Shown piece after piece: positions 38,279 through 54,742 of a stretch of DNA of 64,000 nt. The translations under genes were made by a program, and so were the position numbers. The DNA is from Microtetraspora fusca. GTDB lineage: Bacteria; Actinomycetota; Actinomycetes; Streptosporangiales; Streptosporangiaceae. The notes below the pieces were generated by a model. It was given only the letters and a program-made list of their open reading frames with translations. It ran no database searches and was not told where the DNA came from. The stretch is taken from the NCBI RefSeq assembly GCF_001570365.1, contig NZ_BBYK01000072.1:1-64000 (forward strand), read 5' to 3'. How positions within the stretch are numbered: the stretch's first letter is position 1; each line of letters opens with the position of its first letter.

Positions 38279-39265
38279 ATGCTGTTGGGCGTGTCGAATC
38301 CATCCCCACTTACCGAAAACAGCCCGCGGCTGCGCATCCCCGAACTGACCTGTCCGTTCCCCAGCGAGGTCAATCCGTACGTCGAGGAAGTGGACAGGGA
38401 CACGCTGGCCTGGCTGGCCGCGTCCGGGATGATCGAGGGCGCCGACAACCTCGCCCGCTACGGCGCGGCCAGGTACGGGTGGCTGGGAGGGAGAACGTAC
38501 CCGTACGCGGCGCGGGAGCTGTGCCAGATCGTCACGGACTGGTGCGTGTGGCTCTTCGCCTTCGACGACGTCTTCTGCGAGTCGGACCGGGCGGCGGCCG
38601 AGATCGCCAGGGCGCTCCCGCAGTTCATCTCGGTCATCGACGATCTCGGCGACGGAGACCCCGTCGGCAACGTCTTCGCCCGGTCGCTGCTCGAAATCAA
38701 GACCAGGATCGCCGCCGCGGGGAACGCCGACCAGCTCGATCGCTGGCGCGCCATGACCAAGGACTACCTCTTCGCCCAGGTCTGGGAGGCGGCCAACCGG
38801 GAGCACGACGTCGTCCCCACCTTCGACGACTACATCGTCATGCGCCGCAGGACCGGCGCGATGCTCACGGTCTTCGCGCTGGTCGACGTGGCCGCCGGCG
38901 CGTACCTGACCCCCGACGAGTGGCGTCACCCGGACGTGCGGGCCATCACCGAGCACGCGAACGACGTCGTCGTGTGGGACAACGACCTCATCTCCTACGC
39001 CAAGGAGCGCTCCGGCCCGAACATCAACAACAACCTCGTCAGCGTGCTGTGCCGGCACAAGGGGTGCTCCACGCAGGAGGCGATGGACCTGATCGGCGTG
39101 ATGCGGAACGAGGCGGTCGCCGGGATGGTCGCGCTCAGGCCCCGCCTCGACGCCCTCGGCTCGCCCGGCGTCGCCGCGTACGTCAAGGGCCTCGAACGCT
39201 GGATCAGCGGCAGCGTGGACTACTCGCTGACCAGCTCCCGCTACGTGACGGCCATGGCCGATTGA
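38279..39265 (+). CDS. Class I terpene synthase
   Basis: 328 residues from ATG 38279 (GTG 38291 also possible; no strong ribosome-binding site, and an A/T-rich promoter region abuts the start). The acidic metal motif is LFAFDDVFCESD (D-D-x-x-x-E) and the NSE triad is VVWDNDLISYAKERSG (N-D-x-x-S-x-x-x-E). The C-terminal R-Y is in SSRYVTAMAD. This is the bacterial sesquiterpene-cyclase family, converting farnesyl or a similar diphosphate to a cyclic terpene; the product cannot be told. There is no prenyltransferase, P450 or methyltransferase beside it. The adjacent convergent gene is a STAND ATPase. Confidence 0.95.
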   Translation: MLLGVSNPSPLTENSPRLRIPELTCPFPSEVNPYVEEVDRDTLAWLAASGMIEGADNLARYGAARYGWLGGRTYPYAARELCQIVTDWCVWLFAFDDVFCESDRAAAEIARALPQFISVIDDLGDGDPVGNVFARSLLEIKTRIAAAGNADQLDRWRAMTKDYLFAQVWEAANREHDVVPTFDDYIVMRRRTGAMLTVFALVDVAAGAYLTPDEWRHPDVRAITEHANDVVVWDNDLISYAKERSGPNINNNLVSVLCRHKGCSTQEAMDLIGVMRNEAVAGMVALRPRLDALGSPGVAAYVKGLERWISGSVDYSLTSSRYVTAMAD

Positions 39266-39390: not shown

Positions 39391-41502
39391 TCAGTCGGCG
39401 GGAGACGGCTCGTCGAACTCGTCCAGCGCGTACTCGATCAGCTCGGTCAGCGAGAGGCGAGTGCCCCTGTTGTACGCGTCCTGGTAGGCGGCGTCGCCGA
39501 GGAGCTTCCTGCACTCCTTGACGCACTGCTCGTGCTCGTTCGTGAAGAAGGGCGCCCCGAACTGCGGCAGCCCGAAGGTGCGCCAGTTGGTCTGGGCCGC
39601 GCCCAGCAGGTGGGCGGTGTACTCGGGCCGCCCCATCTCCAGGTAGAGCCCGGCCATCACGTCCACGCACAGCACGATGCCGAGGACGTCGTGGAAGTGG
39701 CGCTTGATTCGCACGGAAGCCTTGCAGCTCTCCAGCGCCTCGCCGTGGCGGCCAGTGGCCCGCTGGACCTGCGCCGTCGCGTACCACGCGTAGGACCGCA
39801 GCCACTGCTCGCCGCGCTCGGTGCACACCTTGACGCAGTCGGTGAGCAGGCCCTCGGCCTCCTCGTAGTCGCCCTGCGCGAACAGGACCATGGACAGCTC
39901 GACGATCGCGGGCAGCAGGCCCGGGTTGAGCTCGCGCCCGCCCCGGTGGAACTCGATGGCCACGCCGAGCAGGGCCGTGGCCTTCTTGGCGTCGCCCTGG
40001 AGCATGGCGGTCGTGCCCTGCATCTTGGTCGCCAGGATGACGGCCCCGGAGTCGCCGGCCCGCACCGCCTCGTTGCTGCACTCCTCGGCCGCCGCGAGCG
40101 CGCCCGGCAGGTCCCCCTGCGCGCTCCGGATGTACGCGAGCACCCACAGGGCCTTGCACCGTTCCTTGCTCGGCACCCGGGACGCCGCGAGCGCCCGCTC
40201 CAGATAGACCGCGCCCTCGCGGGCGAACCCGCACGCCACCCAGAGGAACCACAGCGACGACACCAGCTCCAGCCCGACCCTGGCCTCGATCGGGTCGAAG
40301 AGGCAGTAGTCGAGCGCGACCCGGATGTTGTCGTGCTCCTGCCGCATGCGCACGTACCACTGCACCTGGCGGGGGCCCGACCAGGAGTGCTCGCCGCGCT
40401 GGGCGAGCTCCAGGTAGTGGTCGCGGTGGCGGCGGCGCAGCGCCTCGGTCTCGCCCAGCTTCTCCAGCCACTCGGCGCCGTACTGCCGGAGCGTGTCGAT
40501 CAGCCGGTACCGGTGGCCGACCGGGGTGGTGAAGCTGAACAGGATCGACTTGTCGACCAGGCCGGAGATCACGTTGAGGATGGTCGCGGCGTCCAGCCCG
40601 TCCCCGGCGCAGACGTAACGCGCCGCGTCCAGGTCGAAGTCGCCCGCGAACACCGACAGCCGGGCCCACAGCAGCCGCTCGGCCGGCTCGCACAGCTCGT
40701 GGCTCCAGCCGATCGCGGCGCGCAGCGTCTGGTGCCGGGGCAGCGCCGTACGGCTCGCGCCGGCCAGCAGGCTGAACCGGTCGGCGAGGAGCGCGAGGAT
40801 CTGCTCGACCGACAGCGCGCGCAGCCGTACGGCGGCGAGTTCGATGGCGAGTGGGATGCCGTCGAGCCGCCGGCACAGCTCGGACACGGCCTGCACGTTG
40901 CTCTCGTCCACCACGAAGTCGGGCACGACCGCGCTGCCCCGCACGGCGAAGAGCTGCACCGCCTCGTTCGTGTACGGGTTCTCCGAGGGGTCATCGCCCG
41001 GTACGGCGAGCGGCGGGACCGCGACCGTGAACTCGCCGGGGGCGTTGAGCGACCGGCGGCTGGTCGCGATGATCCGCAGGTTGGGCGCCCTGGTGAGGAG
41101 GTCGTGCGTCAGCTCGGCGCACGCGTCCACCAGGTGCTCGCACGTGTCCAGGATGAGCAGGATCTCGCGGTCGCCCAGCCACTCGGCGAGGGTCTCGGAA
41201 CCCGCCCGGTGCGACTGGTCGGCGATGCCCAGCGACGCGGTGATCGTGTGCTGGACCATGCCGGCGTCCTGCAGCCGCGCGAGATCGGCGTACCAGACGC
41301 CGTCCTTGAACTCCTGGCGCATCAGATGGGCGATGCGCAGGGCCGTGCGGGACTTGCCCACACCTCCGATCCCGGTCACGGTGACCAGTCGGGAGTCGTG
41401 CAGTCGCTGTCTGATGGTGGTGAGAAGCCTGGTCCGGCCCACGAAGCTGGTCAGCTCCGCGGGCAGGTTGCCCTCTCGACGCCATCCTGATGGCGTTGCC
41501 AT
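39391..41502 (-). CDS. STAND ATPase (NB-ARC) with TPR repeats, no DNA-binding domain
   Basis: 703 residues. NB-ARC: SFVGRTRLLTTIRQRL, Walker A TVTGIGGVGKSRTALRIA, Walker B LLILDTCEHL, sensor RIIATSRRSLNAPGE, the GIPLAIELAA (GxP) motif and a winged-helix subdomain (AERLLWARLSVFAGDFDLDAA). From about residue 340 to 690 come tetratricopeptide-like helices (LVSSLWFLWVACGFAREGAVYLERAL; AIVELSMVLFAQGDYEEAEGLLTDCV). Relatives are usually annotated as LuxR- or SARP/AfsR-type regulators, but here neither an N-terminal BTAD/OmpR domain nor a C-terminal LuxR helix-turn-helix is present. It may sense a signal and act on a partner. It is convergent with the terpene synthase. Confidence 0.92.
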   Translation of the reverse strand: MATPSGWRREGNLPAELTSFVGRTRLLTTIRQRLHDSRLVTVTGIGGVGKSRTALRIAHLMRQEFKDGVWYADLARLQDAGMVQHTITASLGIADQSHRAGSETLAEWLGDREILLILDTCEHLVDACAELTHDLLTRAPNLRIIATSRRSLNAPGEFTVAVPPLAVPGDDPSENPYTNEAVQLFAVRGSAVVPDFVVDESNVQAVSELCRRLDGIPLAIELAAVRLRALSVEQILALLADRFSLLAGASRTALPRHQTLRAAIGWSHELCEPAERLLWARLSVFAGDFDLDAARYVCAGDGLDAATILNVISGLVDKSILFSFTTPVGHRYRLIDTLRQYGAEWLEKLGETEALRRRHRDHYLELAQRGEHSWSGPRQVQWYVRMRQEHDNIRVALDYCLFDPIEARVGLELVSSLWFLWVACGFAREGAVYLERALAASRVPSKERCKALWVLAYIRSAQGDLPGALAAAEECSNEAVRAGDSGAVILATKMQGTTAMLQGDAKKATALLGVAIEFHRGGRELNPGLLPAIVELSMVLFAQGDYEEAEGLLTDCVKVCTERGEQWLRSYAWYATAQVQRATGRHGEALESCKASVRIKRHFHDVLGIVLCVDVMAGLYLEMGRPEYTAHLLGAAQTNWRTFGLPQFGAPFFTNEHEQCVKECRKLLGDAAYQDAYNRGTRLSLTELIEYALDEFDEPSPAD

Positions 41503-41906: not shown

Positions 41907-42863
41907 TCAGGACACCACGTCCTTGGCCCGGAACCGCCGGAAGGCGAACGCGACGAGGATCACCGAGTACGTCACGGACACGGCGACGCCCTTGATCATC
42001 CCGCTGTAGTCGGGGTCGGGGGAGAGCGCGTCGGTCCAGGCGTTGTTCCAGAACGTGGGCAGGAACTCGCGGATGGAGCCCAGGGCCTCCACCGCCTGCA
42101 GGATGCTGCTCACGATCACCAGCCCGACCGCGCCGCCGACCGCGCCCAGGGGCGAGTCCGTGCCGACCGACAGCAGGAACGCGACGGCCGCCACGACGAG
42201 CTGGCTCACCAGCGCGTAGGCCACCACGACGGCGAACCTCGGCAGCACGTCCCCGGCCGGGATCGTCTCGCCGGTGCCCGGCACCTGGATGTCGTTCCAG
42301 CCGAAGACGACCGTGCCCGCGAGCAGCGCCATCAGCGGCAGCACGGTCACCGCGGCGGCCGAGTACGCCATCGCGACGACGAGCTTCTGCCGCAGCAGCC
42401 GGTCGCGCGGCACCGGGGCGGCGAGCAGGTAGCGCAGCGACGACCAGCTCGCCTCGCTCGCCACCGTGTCGCCGCAGAACAGCGCCACCGCGACGACCAG
42501 CAGGAAGTTCGCGGAGACCGACAGGGCGAAGGCGGCGAAGTTCAGCCCGCCCTGGGTGGCGAGGTCGGACAGCCGCATACCGCCGCCCTGCCCGCCTCCG
42601 GGCCCCGGGCCGAACTGGAACGCCACCACCAGGACCCACGGGAGCGCGAGCAGCAGCCCGAACATCGCCATCGTCCTGCGGCGCCGGAGCTGGCGGACGA
42701 ACTCCACCCGCAGCGACAGCGTCCGGCCTGGCGCGTACCCCGGCGCCGCCCCCGACGTCCGCGTCGAGGACGCCGGAGGCCCGCCCGGAGAGGTCACCAC
42801 GCCGCCGGCCGAGGCCGCGGGCGTGTTCGCCGGGGCGGACGCCCCGTCACCGTTCAGGCTCAT
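41907..42863 (-). CDS. ABC-2-type transporter permease
   Basis: 318 residues; ATG preceded by aagggaggg. A proline/alanine-rich N-terminal tail of about 50 residues is followed by six hydrophobic segments (MAMFGLLLALPWVLVVAF; AFALSVSANFLLVVAVALFCGDTVASE; AVTVLPLMALLAGTVVFGW; VVVAYALVSQLVVAAVAFLLSVG; AVGGAVGLVIVSSILQAV; VAVSVTYSVILVAFAF). The cytoplasmic GDTVASEASWSSLRYLLAAPVPRDRLLRQK loop is typical of ABC-2 membrane domains. Its ATPase is the C-terminal part of the fusion protein encoded 19 bases upstream. Confidence 0.92.
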   Translation of the reverse strand: MSLNGDGASAPANTPAASAGGVVTSPGGPPASSTRTSGAAPGYAPGRTLSLRVEFVRQLRRRRTMAMFGLLLALPWVLVVAFQFGPGPGGGQGGGMRLSDLATQGGLNFAAFALSVSANFLLVVAVALFCGDTVASEASWSSLRYLLAAPVPRDRLLRQKLVVAMAYSAAAVTVLPLMALLAGTVVFGWNDIQVPGTGETIPAGDVLPRFAVVVAYALVSQLVVAAVAFLLSVGTDSPLGAVGGAVGLVIVSSILQAVEALGSIREFLPTFWNNAWTDALSPDPDYSGMIKGVAVSVTYSVILVAFAFRRFRAKDVVS

Positions 42864-42882
42864 CTGAGCCCTCCCTTCAGGC

Positions 42883-45561
42883 TCAACGCGCCTCTCCGAT
42901 CAGGTCCAGGAAGACGTCCTCCAGCCGGGGGCCGGGGCCGTCCGAGGGGGAGTGGGTGCCGAGCAGCTCGGCGACCGGTCCCTGGAAGACGAGCTGTCCG
43001 CGCCGCATGACCACCACGTGCGTACACGCCTGCTCGACCTCGGCGAGCAGGTGGCTGGAGACGATGACCGTGCGGCCTCCCTCGGCGTACGCCTTGAGCA
43101 CGGCGCGCATCTCGGCGATCTGCGGTGGGTCCAGCCCGTTGGTGGGCTCGTCGAGCACGAGCAGGTCGGGCAGGCCGAGCATCGCCTGGGCGATGGCGAG
43201 CCGCTGGCGCATCCCCTGCGAGTAGGTGCGCACCGCCCGGTCCAGCGCCGCCCCGAGCCCGGCGATCTCCAGCGCCTCGTCCAGGTGGGCGTCCTCGGCG
43301 GGGCGTCCCGTGGCCTGCCAGTAGAGCTCCAGGTTGGCCCGGCCGGTGAGGTGCGGGAGGAACCCGGGCCCCTCCACGAACGATCCGAGCCGCGACAGGA
43401 CCGGAGCGCCGGGGACCACCCGGCGGCCGAAGATGTGGATCTCGCCCTCGTCCGGGTGGATCAGGCCCATCATCATCCGCATCGTGGTGGTCTTGCCCGC
43501 GCCGTTCGGTCCGAGAAGGCCCAGGACCTGGCCCTTCTCCACCTGGAAGGAGAGGTCGTCCACCGCCTTCTCGCCGTTGCGGTAGCGCTTGGTCAGCCCG
43601 GTGATCCGCAGCGGAGCGCCGTCGCCGTCCTCGCGCTCGTCGGCGGGAGCCGTACGGCGGCGGCCGGCGAGGAGGAGCGCCGCCGCGACCACGATCGCGG
43701 CCAGCGGGGCGGCCCATGTCCACCAGGCCGGCCCCGTCGCGGGCGTGACCAGCGACGCGTCGTCGGGGAGCGAGACGGTCCCGCCGGCGAGGCCCACCCG
43801 GTACGCGGCGGGCGCGGACGGCGTGGCGTACCCCATGTCGGTGGTCGTCAGCACGACCCGCAGCCGGTGGCCCGCGTCGAAGCGCCGGTCGATCGCGGGG
43901 AGCGTGACGGTCGCCTCCGCGCCGGACTCCGACGCGGTGACGCGCAGCGGCGCCACCAGGCTCGACGGCAGCACGGCGAGCCGTCCGCCGCTCGCGTCGT
44001 AGAGCTTGGCGAACAGGGTGACCTCGCCCGTGCCGTACACCTTGATCCGCACGGTGGGGGCGCCGGTGACGTGGACCGGCGCGGCGAGCGGCGCGGACTC
44101 GAACACCGCGGCCTGCCCGGGGACGTCCACGGAGACACCGGGGTTGGCGCTCGCGCCGCCGAGCAGGCTCATCCCCGGCACGATCGAGACGGACGCAGGG
44201 GAGCCGCCGGGCGGGTTCGCGATCTCCTGCACCGGGCCGATGACCGGCACCTCGGTCCGCGAGGCGCCTCCCAGACCGGGGTACGAGGGCGCGCTCGCGT
44301 GGACCACGAGGGAGCGGCGGGTGCCGGGGTCCCGGCCGCCGTCGCGCGACACCGTGAAGCCCTCGACCCCCTCGACGTCCCCGGCGGGCGCCGAGGCGGT
44401 CGCGGTGCCCTCGGGCGTGGCGGCCTTCACGGCGTCGCCGGGCGTGCCGGCATCGGCGGTGGTCCGGCCGGCGCGCACGCCGGGGACGGGAGAGTCCTTG
44501 AGCCAGCGGTCGAGCCACGCCGTGGTGCGCTCCTCCACCCATTCGGTGTCGCTGTCGGACCCGCCGCCGTCGTGTCCGCCGCTGATCCAGGCGACCTCCA
44601 CCGGCGCGCCGGTCGCGGCGATCGCCCGGGCGTTGGCGTCCGCGTGCCCCAACGGGAACAGCGAGTCGCGCTGACCCTGGATCAGCAGGGTCGGGATCCT
44701 GATCCGGCCGGCCACCGACACCGGGCTCGACGCGCGCAGCAGCTTCACCGCCTCGGGCGTCGCCCGGCCGGTCTCCGCGACGGTCAGGTACATGTCGCAG
44801 ATCTCGGCCAGGAAGCGGCCGCACTGGGCCTGACGGGAGGCTCCCTGCGCCGCGGGCGCACCGGAGCCGCCGCCGGCCAGGGCGGCCAGCCCGCCCGGCG
44901 CGCCGCCGGGCAGGGCGCTGCCGCCCGAGCTGAAGAAGAGACCGGCCCACATCTTCTTGAACACGCCGTGCTCGGGCCCCTGCCCGGTGGACTCGGGGAA
45001 GAGCGCGTCGGCGAGGTCGTACCAGGTGATCTGCGGCACGATGGCGTCGATCCTGGTGTCGTAGGCGGCGGCCATCAGGGCGATCGCCCCGCCGTACGAG
45101 CCGCCCGCGATGCCCACCCGGGGGTCGCCGTCGGCGTCGAGCCGCACCTCCGGGCGGCGGGCGAGCCAGTCGACCAGCGCCCGCACGTCCTTCACCTCGT
45201 AGTCCGGCGAGTTCAGCGCGATCTCGCCGGTGGAGCGCCCGAACCCGCGGGCCGACCAGGTCAGTACGGCATAGCCGCGCCCGGCCAGCCGGGCCGCCTC
45301 GTCCCGCAGGTCGTCCTTGCTGCCGCCGAAGCCGTGGGCGAGGAGCACGGCCGGGGCCCGGCCGCCGGTGGCGGGCGGGAAGTAGGCGGCGTCCAGCGTC
45401 ACGTGCTGGTCGTCGGCGGGTCCGTCCACGACGGAGATGGCCACGTCCTGCCCGCGTACCCGCGGCTCGGACGGCCACAGGTACCAGGTGAGGCCGCCCG
45501 CGACCACCAGCGCGAGCGCCACCAGTGCGGCAAGGGCGCGCCGCCCACCCCGAAACGTCAT
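42883..45561 (-). CDS. CocE/PepX-type hydrolase fused to an ABC transporter ATPase
   Basis: 892 residues from ATG 45561. Membrane segment at 8-28; extracytoplasmic alpha/beta hydrolase at about 40-390 with AVLLAHGFGGSKDDL, nucleophile elbow VGIAGGSYGGAIALM (Ser155), a likely acid in TLLIQGQRDSLFPLG and His in WISGGHDGGG. A PepX_C-like beta domain follows at about 430-590 (VRIKVYGTGEVTLFAKLYD; GHRLRVVLTTTDMGYA). Second membrane helix at about 606-628 (WWTWAAPLAAIVVAAALLLAG), then a complete ABC ATPase at 649-892: Walker A GPNGAGKTTT (684-691 region), signature YSQGMRQRLAIAQ, Walker B LLVLDEPTNGLD and H-loop VSSHLL. It is the first gene of an operon with the permease. The fusion links an outside hydrolase to a cytoplasmic export ATPase. 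Confidence 0.93.
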   Translation of the reverse strand: MTFRGGRRALAALVALALVVAGGLTWYLWPSEPRVRGQDVAISVVDGPADDQHVTLDAAYFPPATGGRAPAVLLAHGFGGSKDDLRDEAARLAGRGYAVLTWSARGFGRSTGEIALNSPDYEVKDVRALVDWLARRPEVRLDADGDPRVGIAGGSYGGAIALMAAAYDTRIDAIVPQITWYDLADALFPESTGQGPEHGVFKKMWAGLFFSSGGSALPGGAPGGLAALAGGGSGAPAAQGASRQAQCGRFLAEICDMYLTVAETGRATPEAVKLLRASSPVSVAGRIRIPTLLIQGQRDSLFPLGHADANARAIAATGAPVEVAWISGGHDGGGSDSDTEWVEERTTAWLDRWLKDSPVPGVRAGRTTADAGTPGDAVKAATPEGTATASAPAGDVEGVEGFTVSRDGGRDPGTRRSLVVHASAPSYPGLGGASRTEVPVIGPVQEIANPPGGSPASVSIVPGMSLLGGASANPGVSVDVPGQAAVFESAPLAAPVHVTGAPTVRIKVYGTGEVTLFAKLYDASGGRLAVLPSSLVAPLRVTASESGAEATVTLPAIDRRFDAGHRLRVVLTTTDMGYATPSAPAAYRVGLAGGTVSLPDDASLVTPATGPAWWTWAAPLAAIVVAAALLLAGRRRTAPADEREDGDGAPLRITGLTKRYRNGEKAVDDLSFQVEKGQVLGLLGPNGAGKTTTMRMMMGLIHPDEGEIHIFGRRVVPGAPVLSRLGSFVEGPGFLPHLTGRANLELYWQATGRPAEDAHLDEALEIAGLGAALDRAVRTYSQGMRQRLAIAQAMLGLPDLLVLDEPTNGLDPPQIAEMRAVLKAYAEGGRTVIVSSHLLAEVEQACTHVVVMRRGQLVFQGPVAELLGTHSPSDGPGPRLEDVFLDLIGEAR

Positions 45562-45709: not shown

Positions 45710-46909
45710 GTGATTGGAACGCTCAGGCAAACACCTCATCGGATCCTCGACTGGGCCCTCCCGTACTGGACCAGAGGGGAGGCCGGCAGGGAGACTCCGG
45801 CGGAACTGTTCCGGGTCCTCTACCTCGGCTGGTTGACGGCGTTCGTCCTGAAGGTGCTGGGGGCGTCCTGGGACGTGTCCTGGCACTTCCGCTGGCTGCG
45901 CGACGACCTGGCCCCGCCGCACCTGCTCAACACGGTCGGCACGGTCATCGCCGTCGGGCTGACCATCGTCCACTGGTACACCGGTTACGGCGTGGACCGC
46001 CTGGCCTCCAGGCTGATCGTGTGGGGCACGGGCGTCTTCCTCATCGCGATCCCGCTCGACCTGATCAACCACCGCGTCAACGGCCTCGACATCACCGCGT
46101 GGAGCCCCTCGCACGCGCTGCTGTTCATCGGCAGCGGGCTGATGATCGCCGGGGTGACCCGGGGGTGGTGGCTCGGCGCGCCGCGCGGCGACGCGCGGAC
46201 CGAGCGGCGGCGCACCCTGGTCCTCGGCGCGCTGTTCGTCTTCTTCCTGGAGAACCTGCACTTCCCCGCCCAGCAGCAGGAGTACGGCGTGCTGGAGATC
46301 GCCTCCTGGGACCGCGGCGATCCGTACGCGGAGCCGAGCCTGCTGGCGTTCGCCGCCAACCAGCTCGGCCGCGCGGTGGACCGGGAGATGATCGTCAGGT
46401 TCTCGCTGCCGGTGCCCGACCTGCTCTACCCGCTTTGGGTCGGAGTGGCGGGCATGCTCATCCTGGTCATCGCCCGCCACATGGTCGGGCGGACGTGGAC
46501 GGCCACGGCCGTCGCGGGCGCGTACGTCGCCTACCGCGCGCTGGTCTGGCCGCTCTTCGTCGGGATGGGTTTCCCGGCCTCGGCCATCCCGTTCTTCTTC
46601 GTGCTCGCCGCCGTCGGTGTGGACCTCGCCTTCATGGGCTGCCTCCCGCTGGGCGACACGATGGCCGCTCGCCTGGTCCGGCCCGTGCTCGGCGCCGCCC
46701 TGGCCACGGCGGGCGTCTACGGCGGCCTCGCGGTGCAGGGCCACTATCTCGCCGCGCCGCCGTACCCGGTGGACTCGTGGCCGCTCGCGGGCGGCCTTCT
46801 CCTCGCGGTCTGGATCGTCGCCGAGATCGTCGCCTGGAAGTACCGCCTGCGCGACGGCGATCGGGATCAGGCGACGGGCGCGCGGGTCAGCGCCACCGCC
46901 ACGCCGTAG
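45710..46909 (+). CDS. Polytopic membrane protein with intramembrane histidines
   Basis: 399 residues from GTG 45710; no clear ribosome-binding site. About nine or ten hydrophobic segments. Several segments carry His next to aromatic or Pro residues: WDVSWHFRWLRDD, APPHLLNTVGTVIAVGLTIVHWYTGYG, AWSPSHALLFIGSG and FFLENLHFPAQQQEYG. I know no family name. Its 3' end overlaps that of copD by 43 bases on the opposite strand. The His-rich helices and the copper neighbours make a metal-related role possible, but this is inference. Confidence 0.8.
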   Translation: MIGTLRQTPHRILDWALPYWTRGEAGRETPAELFRVLYLGWLTAFVLKVLGASWDVSWHFRWLRDDLAPPHLLNTVGTVIAVGLTIVHWYTGYGVDRLASRLIVWGTGVFLIAIPLDLINHRVNGLDITAWSPSHALLFIGSGLMIAGVTRGWWLGAPRGDARTERRRTLVLGALFVFFLENLHFPAQQQEYGVLEIASWDRGDPYAEPSLLAFAANQLGRAVDREMIVRFSLPVPDLLYPLWVGVAGMLILVIARHMVGRTWTATAVAGAYVAYRALVWPLFVGMGFPASAIPFFFVLAAVGVDLAFMGCLPLGDTMAARLVRPVLGAALATAGVYGGLAVQGHYLAAPPYPVDSWPLAGGLLLAVWIVAEIVAWKYRLRDGDRDQATGARVSATATP

Positions 46910-47973
46910 GCGAGGCCCATGACGGCGAGTTCGAACGCCACCCAGGCGGCGAACGCCGTCGGGGCCCGCCGGCTGATCGCGGGCAGCAGCCGCCAGCGGA
47001 TGTTGCCCCCGAGCAGCGCCACCGCACCGACGAAAAGGATCTTCGCGACGACGAGCCGGCCGTAGCCGGTGGTCACCAGCGAGAGCGGGAACTCCTGGCC
47101 CGGCGTCAGCAGCAGCTCGACCACTCCGTTGAAGAGGCCGGTGAGGCCGACGACGAGCAGCGCCGCCGTCGCCAGCCGGGAGAAGCGCGGCAGCGTCGCC
47201 GCGAGCAGGTCGCGGTTGCCCGCGAGCAGCACGGCCAGCGCGAGCAGGCCCCCGACCCACGCGGCGGAGCCGATGACGTGCAGCTCCATCGAGACCATGC
47301 TCAGGTCGTGCCAGTACCAGTTGGAGGCGTGACCGGTCACCGGCAGCGGCAGCAGGCCGAACGCCGCCACCAGCACGCGGAACTCGGCCGGGACCTTCTC
47401 GCCGAACCTGACCGCCAGCATGCCGACGGCGGCGCTGACCATCGCGCTGGACGCGCTCACGATCAGCCCCTGGCCGGAGCCGATCCGCTCGACGAACTCG
47501 GCCACGTCGGGCGCCTGGCCGGGGTTCAGCTCGGCCGCGCTCAGCACGGTGGACACGAGCGCGGACGCGGCCCACACCAGCGCCGACAGCACCGCCCAGT
47601 GCCGCGCCCGCGAGGCGACCGGCTCGGTGCGCTCCGGATCGCCGAAGCCGAGCAGCTTGGGCAGCAGGCTGAGCCCGACGGTCGCGGTCGCGGCCACGTC
47701 GAGGACCAGCCGCATGACGGGCAGGCCGAAGTCGACCAGGGGGCTGGGCATCACGATGCCCTGCGCGGCCTTCGGGAGGGTCAGCCAGGTCGAGACCAGC
47801 GCGGTGAGCAGCCCCGCGAAGGTGAGCGCGGCGACGGCCAGCCTGGGGCGGGCCACCGGCTCCGTACTCACCGTGCTTTCCGGGCTCTCCAGGCTCTCCG
47901 TGCTTTCCGGGGTCTCCGTGCTTTCCGGGGTCTCGGTGCTCTGCGGGCTCTCGGCGGCTCCGGTCGCGGTCAC
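46867..47973 (-). CDS. copD: CopD-family copper resistance membrane protein
   Basis: 368 residues from GTG 47973, which overlaps the copC stop as GTGA. The N-terminal 45 residues are a Glu/Ser/Thr/Pro repeat (STETPESTETPESTESLESP). Eight hydrophobic segments follow. CopD-typical His-bearing text is PVTGHASNWYWHDLSMVSMELHVIGSAAWVGGLLALAVLL, with Gly-His and His-(I/V)-x-G-x-x-x-W-V-G-G motifs. CopD works with CopC in moving copper across the cytoplasmic membrane. Second gene of the copC-copD operon. Confidence 0.93.
   Translation of the reverse strand: MTATGAAESPQSTETPESTETPESTESLESPESTVSTEPVARPRLAVAALTFAGLLTALVSTWLTLPKAAQGIVMPSPLVDFGLPVMRLVLDVAATATVGLSLLPKLLGFGDPERTEPVASRARHWAVLSALVWAASALVSTVLSAAELNPGQAPDVAEFVERIGSGQGLIVSASSAMVSAAVGMLAVRFGEKVPAEFRVLVAAFGLLPLPVTGHASNWYWHDLSMVSMELHVIGSAAWVGGLLALAVLLAGNRDLLAATLPRFSRLATAALLVVGLTGLFNGVVELLLTPGQEFPLSLVTTGYGRLVVAKILFVGAVALLGGNIRWRLLPAISRRAPTAFAAWVAFELAVMGLAYGVAVALTRAPVA
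47869..47950. repeat. 18-bp tandem repeats in the copD 5' end
   Basis: tccgtgctttccggggtc occurs exactly twice (47897-47914, 47915-47932), flanked by degenerate copies on both sides, about four units in all. They encode the repeated Glu-Ser-Thr-(Glu)-(Thr)-Pro peptide at the N-terminus of CopD. Copy number is likely to vary between strains. Confidence 0.8.
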
Positions 47974-48590
47974 GCCGCGCCTCGCAGCCTGCGGTCGTGC
48001 CGGACGAGCACGTACGCGGACAGGGCGAGCAGCGCGGCGGCGACGACGAGCAGACCCCACACCCAGCCACCGGACGAGCTCTGCGCGGCGAGGTCGGCGG
48101 CCGAGGCGGCGGAGCCGGGCTCCCCTCCGGCGGCCGGGGGCAGCGGGTCGCCCGCCGCCGGAGTCGAGGCCGCCGAGGGGGACGGCGTGGGCTCGGCCGA
48201 GGGGGAGGACTGCCCGGCGGCCGGTCCGGCCGCGGTCAGCGTGAAGGTGATCGTTCCGGTGACCGGGTGGCCGTCGTTCGACACGACGCGATAGCCGATC
48301 GTGTACGCGCCGGCCGGGCCGAGCGGAGCCAGGCCGACCGAGACGTCGTTCCCCTTCGTCGCGATCTCACCTTGCGCGTACTCGGCCCCGTCGGGACCGG
48401 TGACCGCGATGCGCGCGAAGTCCCGGCGTACGGGCTGGTCGAACTTCAGCGTGATCCGCTCCGGAGCGGTGGAGACCTGGGCGCCGTCCTTGGGGTCGCT
48501 GCCGACCAGCACGTTGTGCGCCTGCGCCGGCGCCGCGACGCCCAGCAGAGCGGCGCAGGCGAGCAGCAGGACCGTGAGTAGCCGCCTCAC
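47970..48590 (-). CDS. copC: CopC-domain copper-binding protein
   Basis: 206 residues from GTG 48590 (ggaagg upstream). Signal peptide VRRLLTVLLLACAALLGVAAPAQA, so that cleavage leaves an N-terminal His: HNVLVGSDPKDGAQVSTAPERITLKFDQPV, the classical Cu(II)-binding amino terminus of CopC. A second ligand region is VVSNDGHPVTGTITFTL. A Pro/Ser/Ala linker and a C-terminal membrane helix (GWVWGLLVVAAALLALSAYVLV) anchor it outside the cell. Translationally coupled to copD through GTGA. Confidence 0.94.
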   Translation of the reverse strand: MRRLLTVLLLACAALLGVAAPAQAHNVLVGSDPKDGAQVSTAPERITLKFDQPVRRDFARIAVTGPDGAEYAQGEIATKGNDVSVGLAPLGPAGAYTIGYRVVSNDGHPVTGTITFTLTAAGPAAGQSSPSAEPTPSPSAASTPAAGDPLPPAAGGEPGSAASAADLAAQSSSGGWVWGLLVVAAALLALSAYVLVRHDRRLRGAA

Positions 48591-48782
48591 CGATGATGAC
48601 CTTCCATTGGATGCTTCCTGACCCAGACATGGTCCCACCTGTCCGGCACCGGTACGGCTCCCGCCGGGTCGGCGGAAGCCCGCATCCCCTGTGGCGTCGC
48701 CCTCGGAGAACGAGCAAAAGTTCCGGCGGGCCCACCGCGGCTCGCGGCCTGGCGGCGCAGGGGCCGCCGGAGAAGGGAAAAG

Positions 48783-52882: not shown

Positions 52883-54742
52883 TCAGGCGAGCGCCCAGCC
52901 GTACATCCAGGTGAGGAAGACGAGACCGGTCATCACGGGGACGATGTCGGCCGAGGCGGCGCGCAGCCGGAACGCGGCGATGATCGACAACACCATGGAG
53001 GCCGCCGCGAGCAGGCCGTACCAGGCGATCGCCGGAGGAAGGCCGATGGCGAACACGATGTCGTCGGGCACGCCGGTGACGCTCAGCGCGGTCAGACCGG
53101 CGAAGGCGAGCCCGGTCAGCCCGGCCAGCGCGCGCACCGCGCCGCCGCCCCGGCGGCGCACCAGCGCGACGAGCCCGGCCGCGAGCTGCGCCGCCGCCAC
53201 GAGCACGAAGACCGCGAGTGGGGCGATCAGCGCCGGCGACTGCGAGATCCGGTACGGCGCGGCCGTCAGGTGCAGGTCACCCGGCCGGACCAGGGCGGAG
53301 GCGCCCGCGCCCGGATCGCACACCGCTCCCGCGGAACCGGCCGCGGGCGCGCCGGAGGCGGCCGAGGTGGGCGCGTCGAGGAACGCGGAGATCGTACGGC
53401 GTCCGCACTCGCTCGCCAGGAACACTCCGTGCCCGACGCCCGCGAACTCGGCGAACCGGGCGGTCGGGATGTCGTCCGCGGCCGCCCGCGCGCTCTCCGG
53501 CGGCGTGGTCGGGTCGTACTGCCCGCCGAGGACCAGGGTCGGCGCCTCGACGGGGCCGGACTCGTCCAAGCTGCGGGGCAGGTGCCAGGCGGCGCACACG
53601 GCGGCGTCCGCGACGCCGGTGAACAGCCGCGGCCCGGCAGTGGCGGCGAACGTGTTGAACGGCACCTCGTCCTGGCACTGGACCGCGTAGTACAGGCCCC
53701 AGTCGTGCGAGGTCAGCGCGTCGCCCGCCGCGTCGACGACCGGCCGGAGCAGCTCCGTCCTGCCGTCCGCGAGCGCGTCCACGAGCGCGGGGACCAGCGG
53801 GAGGAACTCCGTCTCCCGCATGGCCTCGCCGAGGATCGTCGCGATGTCGTCGCCGGTCAGCCGCACGTCGATCCGCTTGCGGGTCAGCGGATCCTTCGTC
53901 TGGTACGCGGCCGGGGCGGCGTTGTACCGGGCCAGCATCTCGTCGAACCGGCCCGCCGCGCCCAGCTTGGTCAGCGTCGCCCGCAGGTCGGGCGCGGCGT
54001 CGTCGTACCAGTTGACCTGGGCGGGGAGGAACGAGTCGAGCACCAGGGCGCGGGTGCCGCGCGGGTCCCTGGCGGCGGCCTCCGCCATCGTGCGGGTGGA
54101 GTAGCTGACGCCCATCAGGTTCCACTGCTCGTAGCCGAGCGCCGCGCGCAGGTCCGCCACGTCGGTGGCGATCTCCTCGGTGCGGTAGCCGCGCAGGTCG
54201 ATCCCCTCGGCCTGGTAACGGCTCTGGCAGGCCAGCGCGCCCTGCCGGACGGGCGCGGTCTCCTCCGCCGTCGCCGTGGGCTTCTTCAGCGTCTCGACCA
54301 GGCCGCGCACCACCTCCGGGCAGGCCAGCGAGGGCTCCGAGTAGCGGCTGCCCCGCTGCTCGACGACGACCACGTCCCGGTCCGGGAACATCTGCGTCAG
54401 GAAGCCGACGAGCCGCAGCGACGGCGACCCGGGGCCGCCGCTGGAGTACGCCACGGGGTCGGGCCTGCGCTGCGGCGAGGTCGATCGGTGGACGGCGTAG
54501 CCCACCCGGATCGTCCTGCTGCCCGGCACGTCACGCCGCTCGGGCACGAGCAGGTAACCGCAGGTCGTGCCCGCCGGAACCGCGACCGGGCACGGCCGCT
54601 CCTCGGTCCCCGCGGCCCGCTCGGCGGCGTGCGCCATGCGGGGGCCGCCGATGAGAACCGTAACGATCGCCGCCATGAGCGCCGTGACGGCCGCTCCACG
54701 CCAACCCCGCAACCGTCCGCTCCGTCTCGCCCACCTGGACAT
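52883..54742 (-). CDS. Secreted alpha/beta hydrolase with C-terminal membrane domain
   Basis: 619 residues. N-terminal export/anchor segment (AAVTALMAAIVTVLIGGPRMAHA). The hydrolase resembles tripeptidyl-aminopeptidase/proline-iminopeptidase-like enzymes: PVAYSSGGPGSPSLRL (oxyanion region), DVVVVEQRGSRYSEP, nucleophile elbow NLMGVSYSTRTMAE, acid in LVLGGQYDPTTPPESA and His in AGVGHGVFLASECG. After residue about 490, four hydrophobic segments (ALIAPLAVFVLVAAAQLAAGLVALV and others) form a membrane domain not usual for the family. The substrate is probably short peptides or esters outside the membrane. Confidence 0.9.
   Translation of the reverse strand: MSRWARRSGRLRGWRGAAVTALMAAIVTVLIGGPRMAHAAERAAGTEERPCPVAVPAGTTCGYLLVPERRDVPGSRTIRVGYAVHRSTSPQRRPDPVAYSSGGPGSPSLRLVGFLTQMFPDRDVVVVEQRGSRYSEPSLACPEVVRGLVETLKKPTATAEETAPVRQGALACQSRYQAEGIDLRGYRTEEIATDVADLRAALGYEQWNLMGVSYSTRTMAEAAARDPRGTRALVLDSFLPAQVNWYDDAAPDLRATLTKLGAAGRFDEMLARYNAAPAAYQTKDPLTRKRIDVRLTGDDIATILGEAMRETEFLPLVPALVDALADGRTELLRPVVDAAGDALTSHDWGLYYAVQCQDEVPFNTFAATAGPRLFTGVADAAVCAAWHLPRSLDESGPVEAPTLVLGGQYDPTTPPESARAAADDIPTARFAEFAGVGHGVFLASECGRRTISAFLDAPTSAASGAPAAGSAGAVCDPGAGASALVRPGDLHLTAAPYRISQSPALIAPLAVFVLVAAAQLAAGLVALVRRRGGGAVRALAGLTGLAFAGLTALSVTGVPDDIVFAIGLPPAIAWYGLLAAASMVLSIIAAFRLRAASADIVPVMTGLVFLTWMYGWALA

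What the first reader, a model, noticed from the sequence alone, without database searches (positions are those of the whole stretch)
41907..45561. Extracytoplasmic peptidase-type hydrolase fused to a cytoplasmic ABC ATPase, with its permease as next gene
One 892-residue frame contains a membrane-anchored CocE/PepX-type hydrolase, a second membrane helix and a full ABC ATPase with all motifs intact. The permease follows 19 bases on. The topology would couple an outside acyl or peptide hydrolysis step to an export ATPase, for example processing the exported molecule on arrival. I know of no characterised system with this layout.
Basis: partly seen in the sequence, partly recalled or inferred. 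Interest (0 to 1): 0.65.

Follow-up and report, generated by a model that had tools for sequence, protein, structure and literature searches.

The report
Outside esterase fused to export pump
A soil actinobacterium makes one protein that joins a predicted enzyme outside the cell to the ATP-burning motor of a pump inside it; the same two-gene unit, with both active sites kept, is found in many other actinobacteria, and its substrate is unknown.

Summary
One 892-codon minus-strand frame (42886-45561) encodes a membrane helix, a CocE/NonD-type (S15) hydrolase with its jelly-roll domain, a second helix and a complete ABC ATPase; an ABC-2 permease gene starts 19 bases after the stop. It is not a chance or broken frame: in 115 fused rows aligned here, catalytic Asp and His are invariant, Ser is missing only from a contig-cut row and a row with unresolved bases, and the second helix is present in all. 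Wherever the sequence reaches, the permease follows. The fusion occurs in several families and at least two classes of Actinomycetota. The hydrolase tree fits one origin, with secreted stand-alone relatives on the other side of one fully supported branch. No neighbour except the permease keeps its place across families. By family model and nearest structure the enzyme looks like an esterase/lipase rather than an X-Pro peptidase. The layout has a known parallel: ZmaM/PamJ/EdeA, S12 peptidases fused to ABC half-transporter parts in toxin clusters. I read the pair as an exporter that hydrolyses an ester or amide in its cargo at the outer face; direction, substrate and coupling are inferred. New variant of a known kind.

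The parts
42883..45561 (-). Hydrolase-ABC ATPase fusion gene, 892 codons plus stop
   Evidence: translation; domains; relatives
45478..45534 (-). First membrane helix (residues 10-28), N-terminus inside (predicted)
   Evidence: hydrophobic in 111 of 112 rows long enough to test, of 115 fused rows
44497..45450 (-). Alpha/beta-hydrolase domain (residues 38-355), S15/CocE-NonD type, predicted outside
   Evidence: PF02129; TIGR00976; model of residues 1-635, mean pLDDT 81.6
45097..45099 (-). Nucleophile Ser155 in GGSYGG
   Evidence: 115 of 117 rows; the other two are L073 (contig cut) and L082 (unresolved bases)
44665..44667 (-). Acid Asp299
   Evidence: 117 of 117 rows
44572..44574 (-). Base His330
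   Evidence: 117 of 117 rows
43762..44364 (-). Jelly-roll (PepX_C-type) domain, residues 400-600
   Evidence: PF08530; beta-rich in both models; PaL, CocE and AEH align over about 31-603
43663..43719 (-). Second membrane helix (residues 615-633), leading back to the cytoplasm (predicted)
   Evidence: hydrophobic in 115 of 115 fused rows; control stretches 0 of 115 and 3 of 115
42961..43611 (-). ABC ATPase domain (residues 651-867), Walker A/B, signature and H-loop intact
   Evidence: PF00005; motifs conserved
41907..42863 (-). ABC-2 type permease gene, 318 residues, about six helices
   Evidence: next to the fusion in relatives

Best explanation
The pair is an ABC-2 exporter whose ATPase subunit carries, through one transmembrane helix, an S15-type ester/amide hydrolase on the outer face of the membrane. 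Two copies of the fusion and two permeases would form the working pump, with a pair of hydrolases over the exit. Most likely the permease and ATPase move an amphipathic ester-, acyl- or peptide-bearing molecule outward and the hydrolase cuts it as it emerges, releasing or activating the product and making export one-way. Shown here: gene structure, intact motifs, family-wide conservation of both active sites, linkage to the permease, a hydrolase tree that fits a single origin. Predicted: topology and fold. Inferred: stoichiometry, catalytic activity, export direction, substrate, and coupling of the two reactions.
For: Domains and motifs. Both active sites kept together: Asp and His in 117 of 117 rows, Ser in 115 of 117. 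Topology: two helices conserved, and a Cys247/Cys255 pair, possibly a disulfide outside, in 116 of 117. Hydrolase and ATPase in one frame with the permease following on the same strand: 79 of 80 named loci have the permease match (L058 ends before it; L086 is cut in it), 34 of 34 fused loci among 38 G-loci, and 8 of 8 fused loci from outside the class. No other neighbour keeps its place across families. Fused hydrolases are split from secreted stand-alone ones by one 100/100 branch. ATPase/permease pairs without hydrolase exist (L119, L174, L175), so the transporter part can stand alone. The best-scoring named ATPase families are lantibiotic protection and DrrA, and the closest solved ATPases are lipid-moving ABCA proteins. 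Precedent: ZmaM/PamJ/EdeA.
Against: No substrate or regulator is linked to it across families. A terpene synthase gene lies in 34 of 84 loci clustered, all of them Streptosporangiaceae, so a tie to natural products there is not excluded. The permease profile has no solved relative at E up to 1, so direction rests on family resemblance. The 25 NCBIfam ATPase models shown (of 200) are all below their curated cutoffs. Nothing shows that hydrolysis and transport depend on each other.
Confidence: 0.5

Rival explanations
1. Protection by hydrolysing and expelling: the outer enzyme inactivates an antibiotic or toxic ester at the membrane surface and the pump keeps it, or its fragment, out of the membrane.
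For: ATPase resembles drug- and lantibiotic-resistance exporters, below cutoffs; enzyme fold shared with cocaine esterase and alpha-amino-acid ester hydrolase; patchy presence: matches in 23 of 91 genera of a class sample, three of which (the genera of G153/G170, G202 and G241) proved not to hold the fusion.
Against: Matches in 66 of 121 genomes of one order, and fusions in two 1.3-1.4 Mb genomes, suggest a native substrate rather than an occasional drug. I did not search the neighbourhoods for resistance genes by name.
Confidence: 0.22
2. Mechanical control: the ATPase moves no cargo but switches the outer hydrolase on and off by conformational change passed through the linking helix and the permease, as recalled for FtsEX and NosDFY.
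For: The enzyme is wired to the ATPase by a single helix kept in 115 of 115 fused rows; NosF is among the closer solved ATPases and the permease matches ABC2_membrane_2.
Against: ATPase/permease pairs without the hydrolase exist (L119, L174, L175), and L126 has a helix, ATPase and permease in one chain without it, which fits a transporter with an added enzyme better.
Confidence: 0.15
3. Simple tether: the fusion only anchors a scavenging esterase to the membrane, and pump and enzyme work independently.
For: Stand-alone secreted relatives exist, two with LAxTG-like tails and a hydrophobic end (L161, L171; motif name recalled).
Against: Anchoring can be had without a pump; and among 115 fused rows no member with a lost triad or ATPase residue was seen, apart from cut rows and the row with unresolved bases.
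Confidence: 0.13

Closest known systems
ZmaM / PamJ / EdeA prodrug-activating peptidases (S12 family, ABC-fused)
   Same: Outer-face hydrolase, membrane helices and an ABC domain on one chain; homologous peptidases cut cargo after export (PMC9889268 and PMC4234257, passages).
   Different: S12 beta-lactamase-like enzyme; helices of the half-transporter in the same chain; in NRPS/PKS clusters. Here S15 enzyme plus jelly roll, and permease as a separate gene. PamJ's peptidase and transport functions are described as unconfirmed in PMC4234257.
S15 / CocE-NonD hydrolases (PaL lipase, cocaine esterase, AEH, PepX)
   Same: Alpha/beta hydrolase with GxSYxG serine (motif recalled) and PepX_C jelly roll; PaL L297M aligns over 31-601 with Z 29.8, 446 residues, rmsd 3.4.
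   Different: None of the solved chains matched as S15 type is reported with an ABC domain (titles); the first 157 residues of X-Pro peptidase 6nff lie outside the alignment.
DrrAB / lantibiotic-protection ABC-2 exporters
   Same: Best-scoring NCBIfam models for the ATPase are TIGR03740 and TIGR01188; separate permease next door.
   Different: Scores below curated cutoffs (178.4 of 309.75; 170.6 of 312.45); those systems have no fused outer enzyme (recalled).
NosDFY
   Same: ATPase plus ABC2_membrane_2-type permease with an outer partner (recalled); NosF is a close solved ATPase.
   Different: NosD is a separate protein, not a hydrolase (recalled); the permease profile found no solved relative at E up to 1.

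Membership tests
Peptidase S15 / CocE-NonD hydrolases | PF02129 and PF08530 above gathering score; TIGR00976 above cutoff | tested here: met
   76.6 vs 23; 32.5 vs 22.5; 91.5 vs 66.3
Peptidase S15 / CocE-NonD hydrolases | Ser-Asp-His triad with GxSYxG | tested here: met
   S155, D299, H330 present and conserved; motif recalled; triad geometry not measured
Peptidase S15 / CocE-NonD hydrolases | Hydrolysis of an ester/amide substrate | not testable with these tools
   needs purified protein
X-Pro dipeptidyl peptidase (PepX) | NCBIfam Xaa-Pro dipeptidyl-peptidase model above cutoff | tested here: not met
   NF003780 49 bits against cutoff 642
ABC-2 exporter (ATPase plus ABC-2 permease) | Complete ATPase motifs and ABC-2 permease family match | tested here: met
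ABC-2 exporter (ATPase plus ABC-2 permease) | Outward transport | not testable with these tools
   no transport data
DrrA / lantibiotic-protection ATPase | TIGR01188 or TIGR03740 above curated cutoff | tested here: not met
   170.6 vs 312.45; 178.4 vs 309.75
ZmaM-type prodrug-activating peptidase | S12 (beta-lactamase superfamily) peptidase domain | tested here: not met
   no beta-lactamase family among the 16 Pfam families at E up to 0.01; the region matches S15
ZmaM-type prodrug-activating peptidase | Located in a natural-product gene cluster | tested here: inconclusive
   no neighbour but the permease keeps its place across families, but a terpene synthase lies in 34 of 84 loci and no cluster finder was run

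The most novel reading that the evidence does not exclude
A phylum-wide machine in which an ABC ATPase drives or gates an extracellular esterase through one shared helix, so that ATP use inside sets when and on what an enzyme outside acts, with transport secondary or absent.
Probability: 0.15. Interest if true: 0.8.

Novelty: new variant of a known kind. Interest (0 to 1): 0.5.

Why it matters
If the reading holds, a widespread actinobacterial pump is also an outside enzyme, and cargo is finished on the doorstep. The ZmaM-type fusions serve single toxins; this unit gave matches in more than half of the sampled genomes of one order (66 of 121), so it may handle a common envelope lipid, peptide or signal. 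It also offers a clean test of whether ATP hydrolysis inside can be linked to catalysis outside, because one chain holds both sites.

Tried and rejected
Chance frame or assembly fault: rejected by relatives. X-Pro peptidase: disfavoured by family model; structure alone does not decide, since cocaine esterase (Z 24.1-24.4), AEH (24.6) and X-Pro peptidase (23.6) are practically tied. Gene-neighbour hints: of 84 loci clustered, a membrane protein, CopD-type and CopC-type genes occur in 62, 58 and 47, a STAND/TPR-type regulator in 50 and a terpene synthase in 34; none of these five families was found in the 14 loci I counted as outside Streptosporangiaceae (13 by organism name, L086 an unplaced MAG). 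Six other families occur on both sides, each in one to three of those 14 loci and not as a fixed neighbour. In the second set of 40 loci five (L113, L117, L118, L123, L129) drop out because my gene caller missed the fusion; there an aldehyde-dehydrogenase-like family recurs in 10 loci at varying places, and rodlin- or chaplin-like genes (names recalled from sequence) in five; neither was used. I guessed S. coelicolor locus tags from memory and found no paper. Viral contigs: three stretches, none a relative. Anti-phage models hit only the ATPase part. Permease against solved structures: no hit. Paper searches (listings seen) brought up no S15-ABC fusion; the library is open-access only and the queries asked for several terms at once, so absence from print is not shown. 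Searches for 8YZN and NosDFY gave nothing useful. The full model mixes enzyme and ATPase hits, hence the hydrolase-only model.

Limits: the 38 and 14 G-loci were chosen from listings, best matches and odd cases first, not drawn at random. The hydrolase tree lacks the 8 fused loci from outside the class. L126 has a very long branch, so its place inside the fused ATPases is unsure. L039 gave only one BLAST piece, but its alignment is 175 of 202 identical over residues 38-239, so it is counted as whole. Two fused rows differ beside the active site: L122 (His76 to Gln) and L128 (Phe78 to Trp).
Full report
What is there. On the minus strand, 45561 down to 42886 is one open frame of 892 residues, and 19 bases after its stop codon begins a 318-residue gene. 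Pfam finds Peptidase_S15 (54-303), PepX_C (483-583) and ABC_tran (668-808) in the first and ABC2_membrane_2/4 in the second; NCBIfam adds CocE/NonD hydrolase above cutoff. Two hydrophobic helices frame the enzyme, 10-28 and 615-633, and the permease has about six. AlphaFold2 models agree: helix 6-27, hydrolase about 38-355, beta-rich domain about 400-600, helix 613-632, ATPase 651-890 (full model mean pLDDT 75.2, pTM 0.61; residues 1-635 alone 81.6, pTM 0.83). A low-confidence loop at 212-240 coincides with a stretch (211-247) that varies from 6 to 132 residues among relatives. The topology, N-terminus inside, enzyme outside, ATPase inside, follows from helices and flanking charges; it is predicted, not measured.

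It is not an accident. A scan of genome contigs gave 374 relatives of any part of the query, of which the best 80 were kept. In 77 of these 80, one frame holds hydrolase and ATPase; L073 and L058 are cut by contig ends, and in L082 the two parts lie in different frames with unresolved bases between them. A permease match follows on the same strand in 79 of 80; L058 ends before it and in L086 it is cut. In whole genomes, 66 of 121 of the order (E up to 1e-80), 48 of 197 of the class (1e-70) and 21 of 198 of the phylum (1e-60) had a match. Not all matches are fusions. Of 38 loci taken from the order and class searches (L092-L129), 34 have hydrolase and ATPase in one frame with the permease following (in L104 cut by the fetched end); L115 and L116 have the hydrolase alone, L119 ATPase and permease alone, L126 a helix, ATPase and permease in one chain without hydrolase. 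Of the 21 phylum matches, 14 lie outside the class and were all fetched: 8 are fusions with the permease (L180-L187), 6 are ATPases without a hydrolase in the stretch (L174-L179). The other whole-genome matches were judged only from the listings.

Both active sites are kept together. In an alignment of 117 rows (window, 80 named loci, 36 G-loci; 115 fused, L115 and L116 hydrolase-only), Asp299 and His330 are invariant, Ser155 is in 115 (the others are L073 and L082), Cys247 and Cys255 in 116. The ATPase residues Lys690, Gly783 and Glu805 are in 115, missing only in the two hydrolase-only rows. The second helix is hydrophobic in 115 of 115 fused rows and the first in 111 of 112 long enough to test, against 0 and 3 of 115 for two control stretches. 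dN/dS against six relatives is well below one for hydrolase, ATPase and permease.

Where it came from. Secreted stand-alone relatives of the hydrolase, about 31-45% identical, occur in the class. In 20 loci chosen as such (L153-L172) no permease relative was found; distant ATPases occur in two of them, 4.0 kb (L154) and 1.6 kb (L156) from the hydrolase frame and on the other strand. In a tree of 43 fused and 21 stand-alone hydrolase domains one branch with 100/100 support divides the two kinds, which fits one origin of the fusion; the root is not known, and the 8 fusions from outside the class were not in this tree. The ATPase tree does include those 8: its 46 fused rows group with four hydrolase-free ones at 100/99 and need three changes of label, so a single branch does not divide them. 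L119, L174 and L175 fall together with the fused L184 (84/88), and L126 lies inside on a very long branch. The simplest history is one fusion of a secreted S15 esterase to such an ATPase with a few later losses, but the ATPase tree alone does not settle it.

What it may do. Across families only the permease keeps its place beside the fusion; neighbours change. Within Streptosporangiaceae a copper-protein pair (CopC, CopD), a regulator-like gene and a terpene synthase recur nearby, so a local tie to a product is open. The enzyme aligns over both its domains with PaL, deposited as a lipase (Z 29.8, 446 residues, rmsd 3.4); AEH, cocaine esterase and X-Pro peptidase follow at Z 24.6, 24.1-24.4 and 23.6 over 446-466 residues, practically tied, and S9 peptidases score as high over some 250 residues. 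The Xaa-Pro dipeptidyl-peptidase family model is far below cutoff while CocE/NonD is above. I therefore favour an ester- or amide-cleaving enzyme at the exit of an exporter. The closest solved ATPases are lipid-moving ABCA proteins, which makes a lipid-like cargo worth testing first.

What is known. ZmaM, PamJ and EdeA-type peptidases are fused to parts of ABC transporters (PMC9889268 and PMC4234257, passages), so the idea of an outer hydrolase and an ABC motor on one chain is not new. The family here differs in enzyme superfamily (S15, not S12) and in having the permease as a separate gene, and it is not confined to one biosynthetic context. It may work like them; it is not a member. Four literature searches aimed at an S15-ABC fusion found no description (listings of open-access text only).

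Verdict. Observation confirmed, interpretation partly supported, a new variant of a known kind. The main unknowns are the substrate and whether the two reactions depend on each other.

Noticed in passing
window 52883-54742 (-): A second alpha/beta hydrolase (Abhydrolase_1, TAP-like PF08386) with a hydrophobic N-terminus (16-34) and at least three hydrophobic C-terminal stretches (510-593): another probable membrane-bound outer hydrolase near the finding.
   Followed up: partly
window 45710-46909 (+), 46867-48060 (-), 47970-48638 (-): A membrane-type protein without any Pfam or NCBIfam match, then CopD and CopC; their families occur in 62, 58 and 47 of 84 loci clustered.
   Followed up: partly
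window 38279-39265 (+) and 39391-41502 (-): Terpene synthase beside a STAND/TPR regulator-like protein; these families occur in 34 and 50 of 84 loci.
   Followed up: partly
L108 (G016) and L109 (G003): A second, divergent copy of the hydrolase-ATPase fusion with its own permease in genomes that also hold the main copy.
   Followed up: partly
L126 5563-7383: One frame with a helix, an ABC ATPase and an ABC-2 permease, no hydrolase: perhaps a form that lost the outer enzyme.
   Followed up: partly
L113 (G144) and L117 (G179): The pair is present in two 1.3-1.4 Mb single-contig genomes listed as 99% complete, which hints at a basic function.
   Followed up: no
protein residues 211-247 (window 44821-44931); L074-L077: A linker in the hydrolase whose length runs from 6 to 132 residues between relatives, Gly/Ser/Thr-rich when long.
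   Followed up: no
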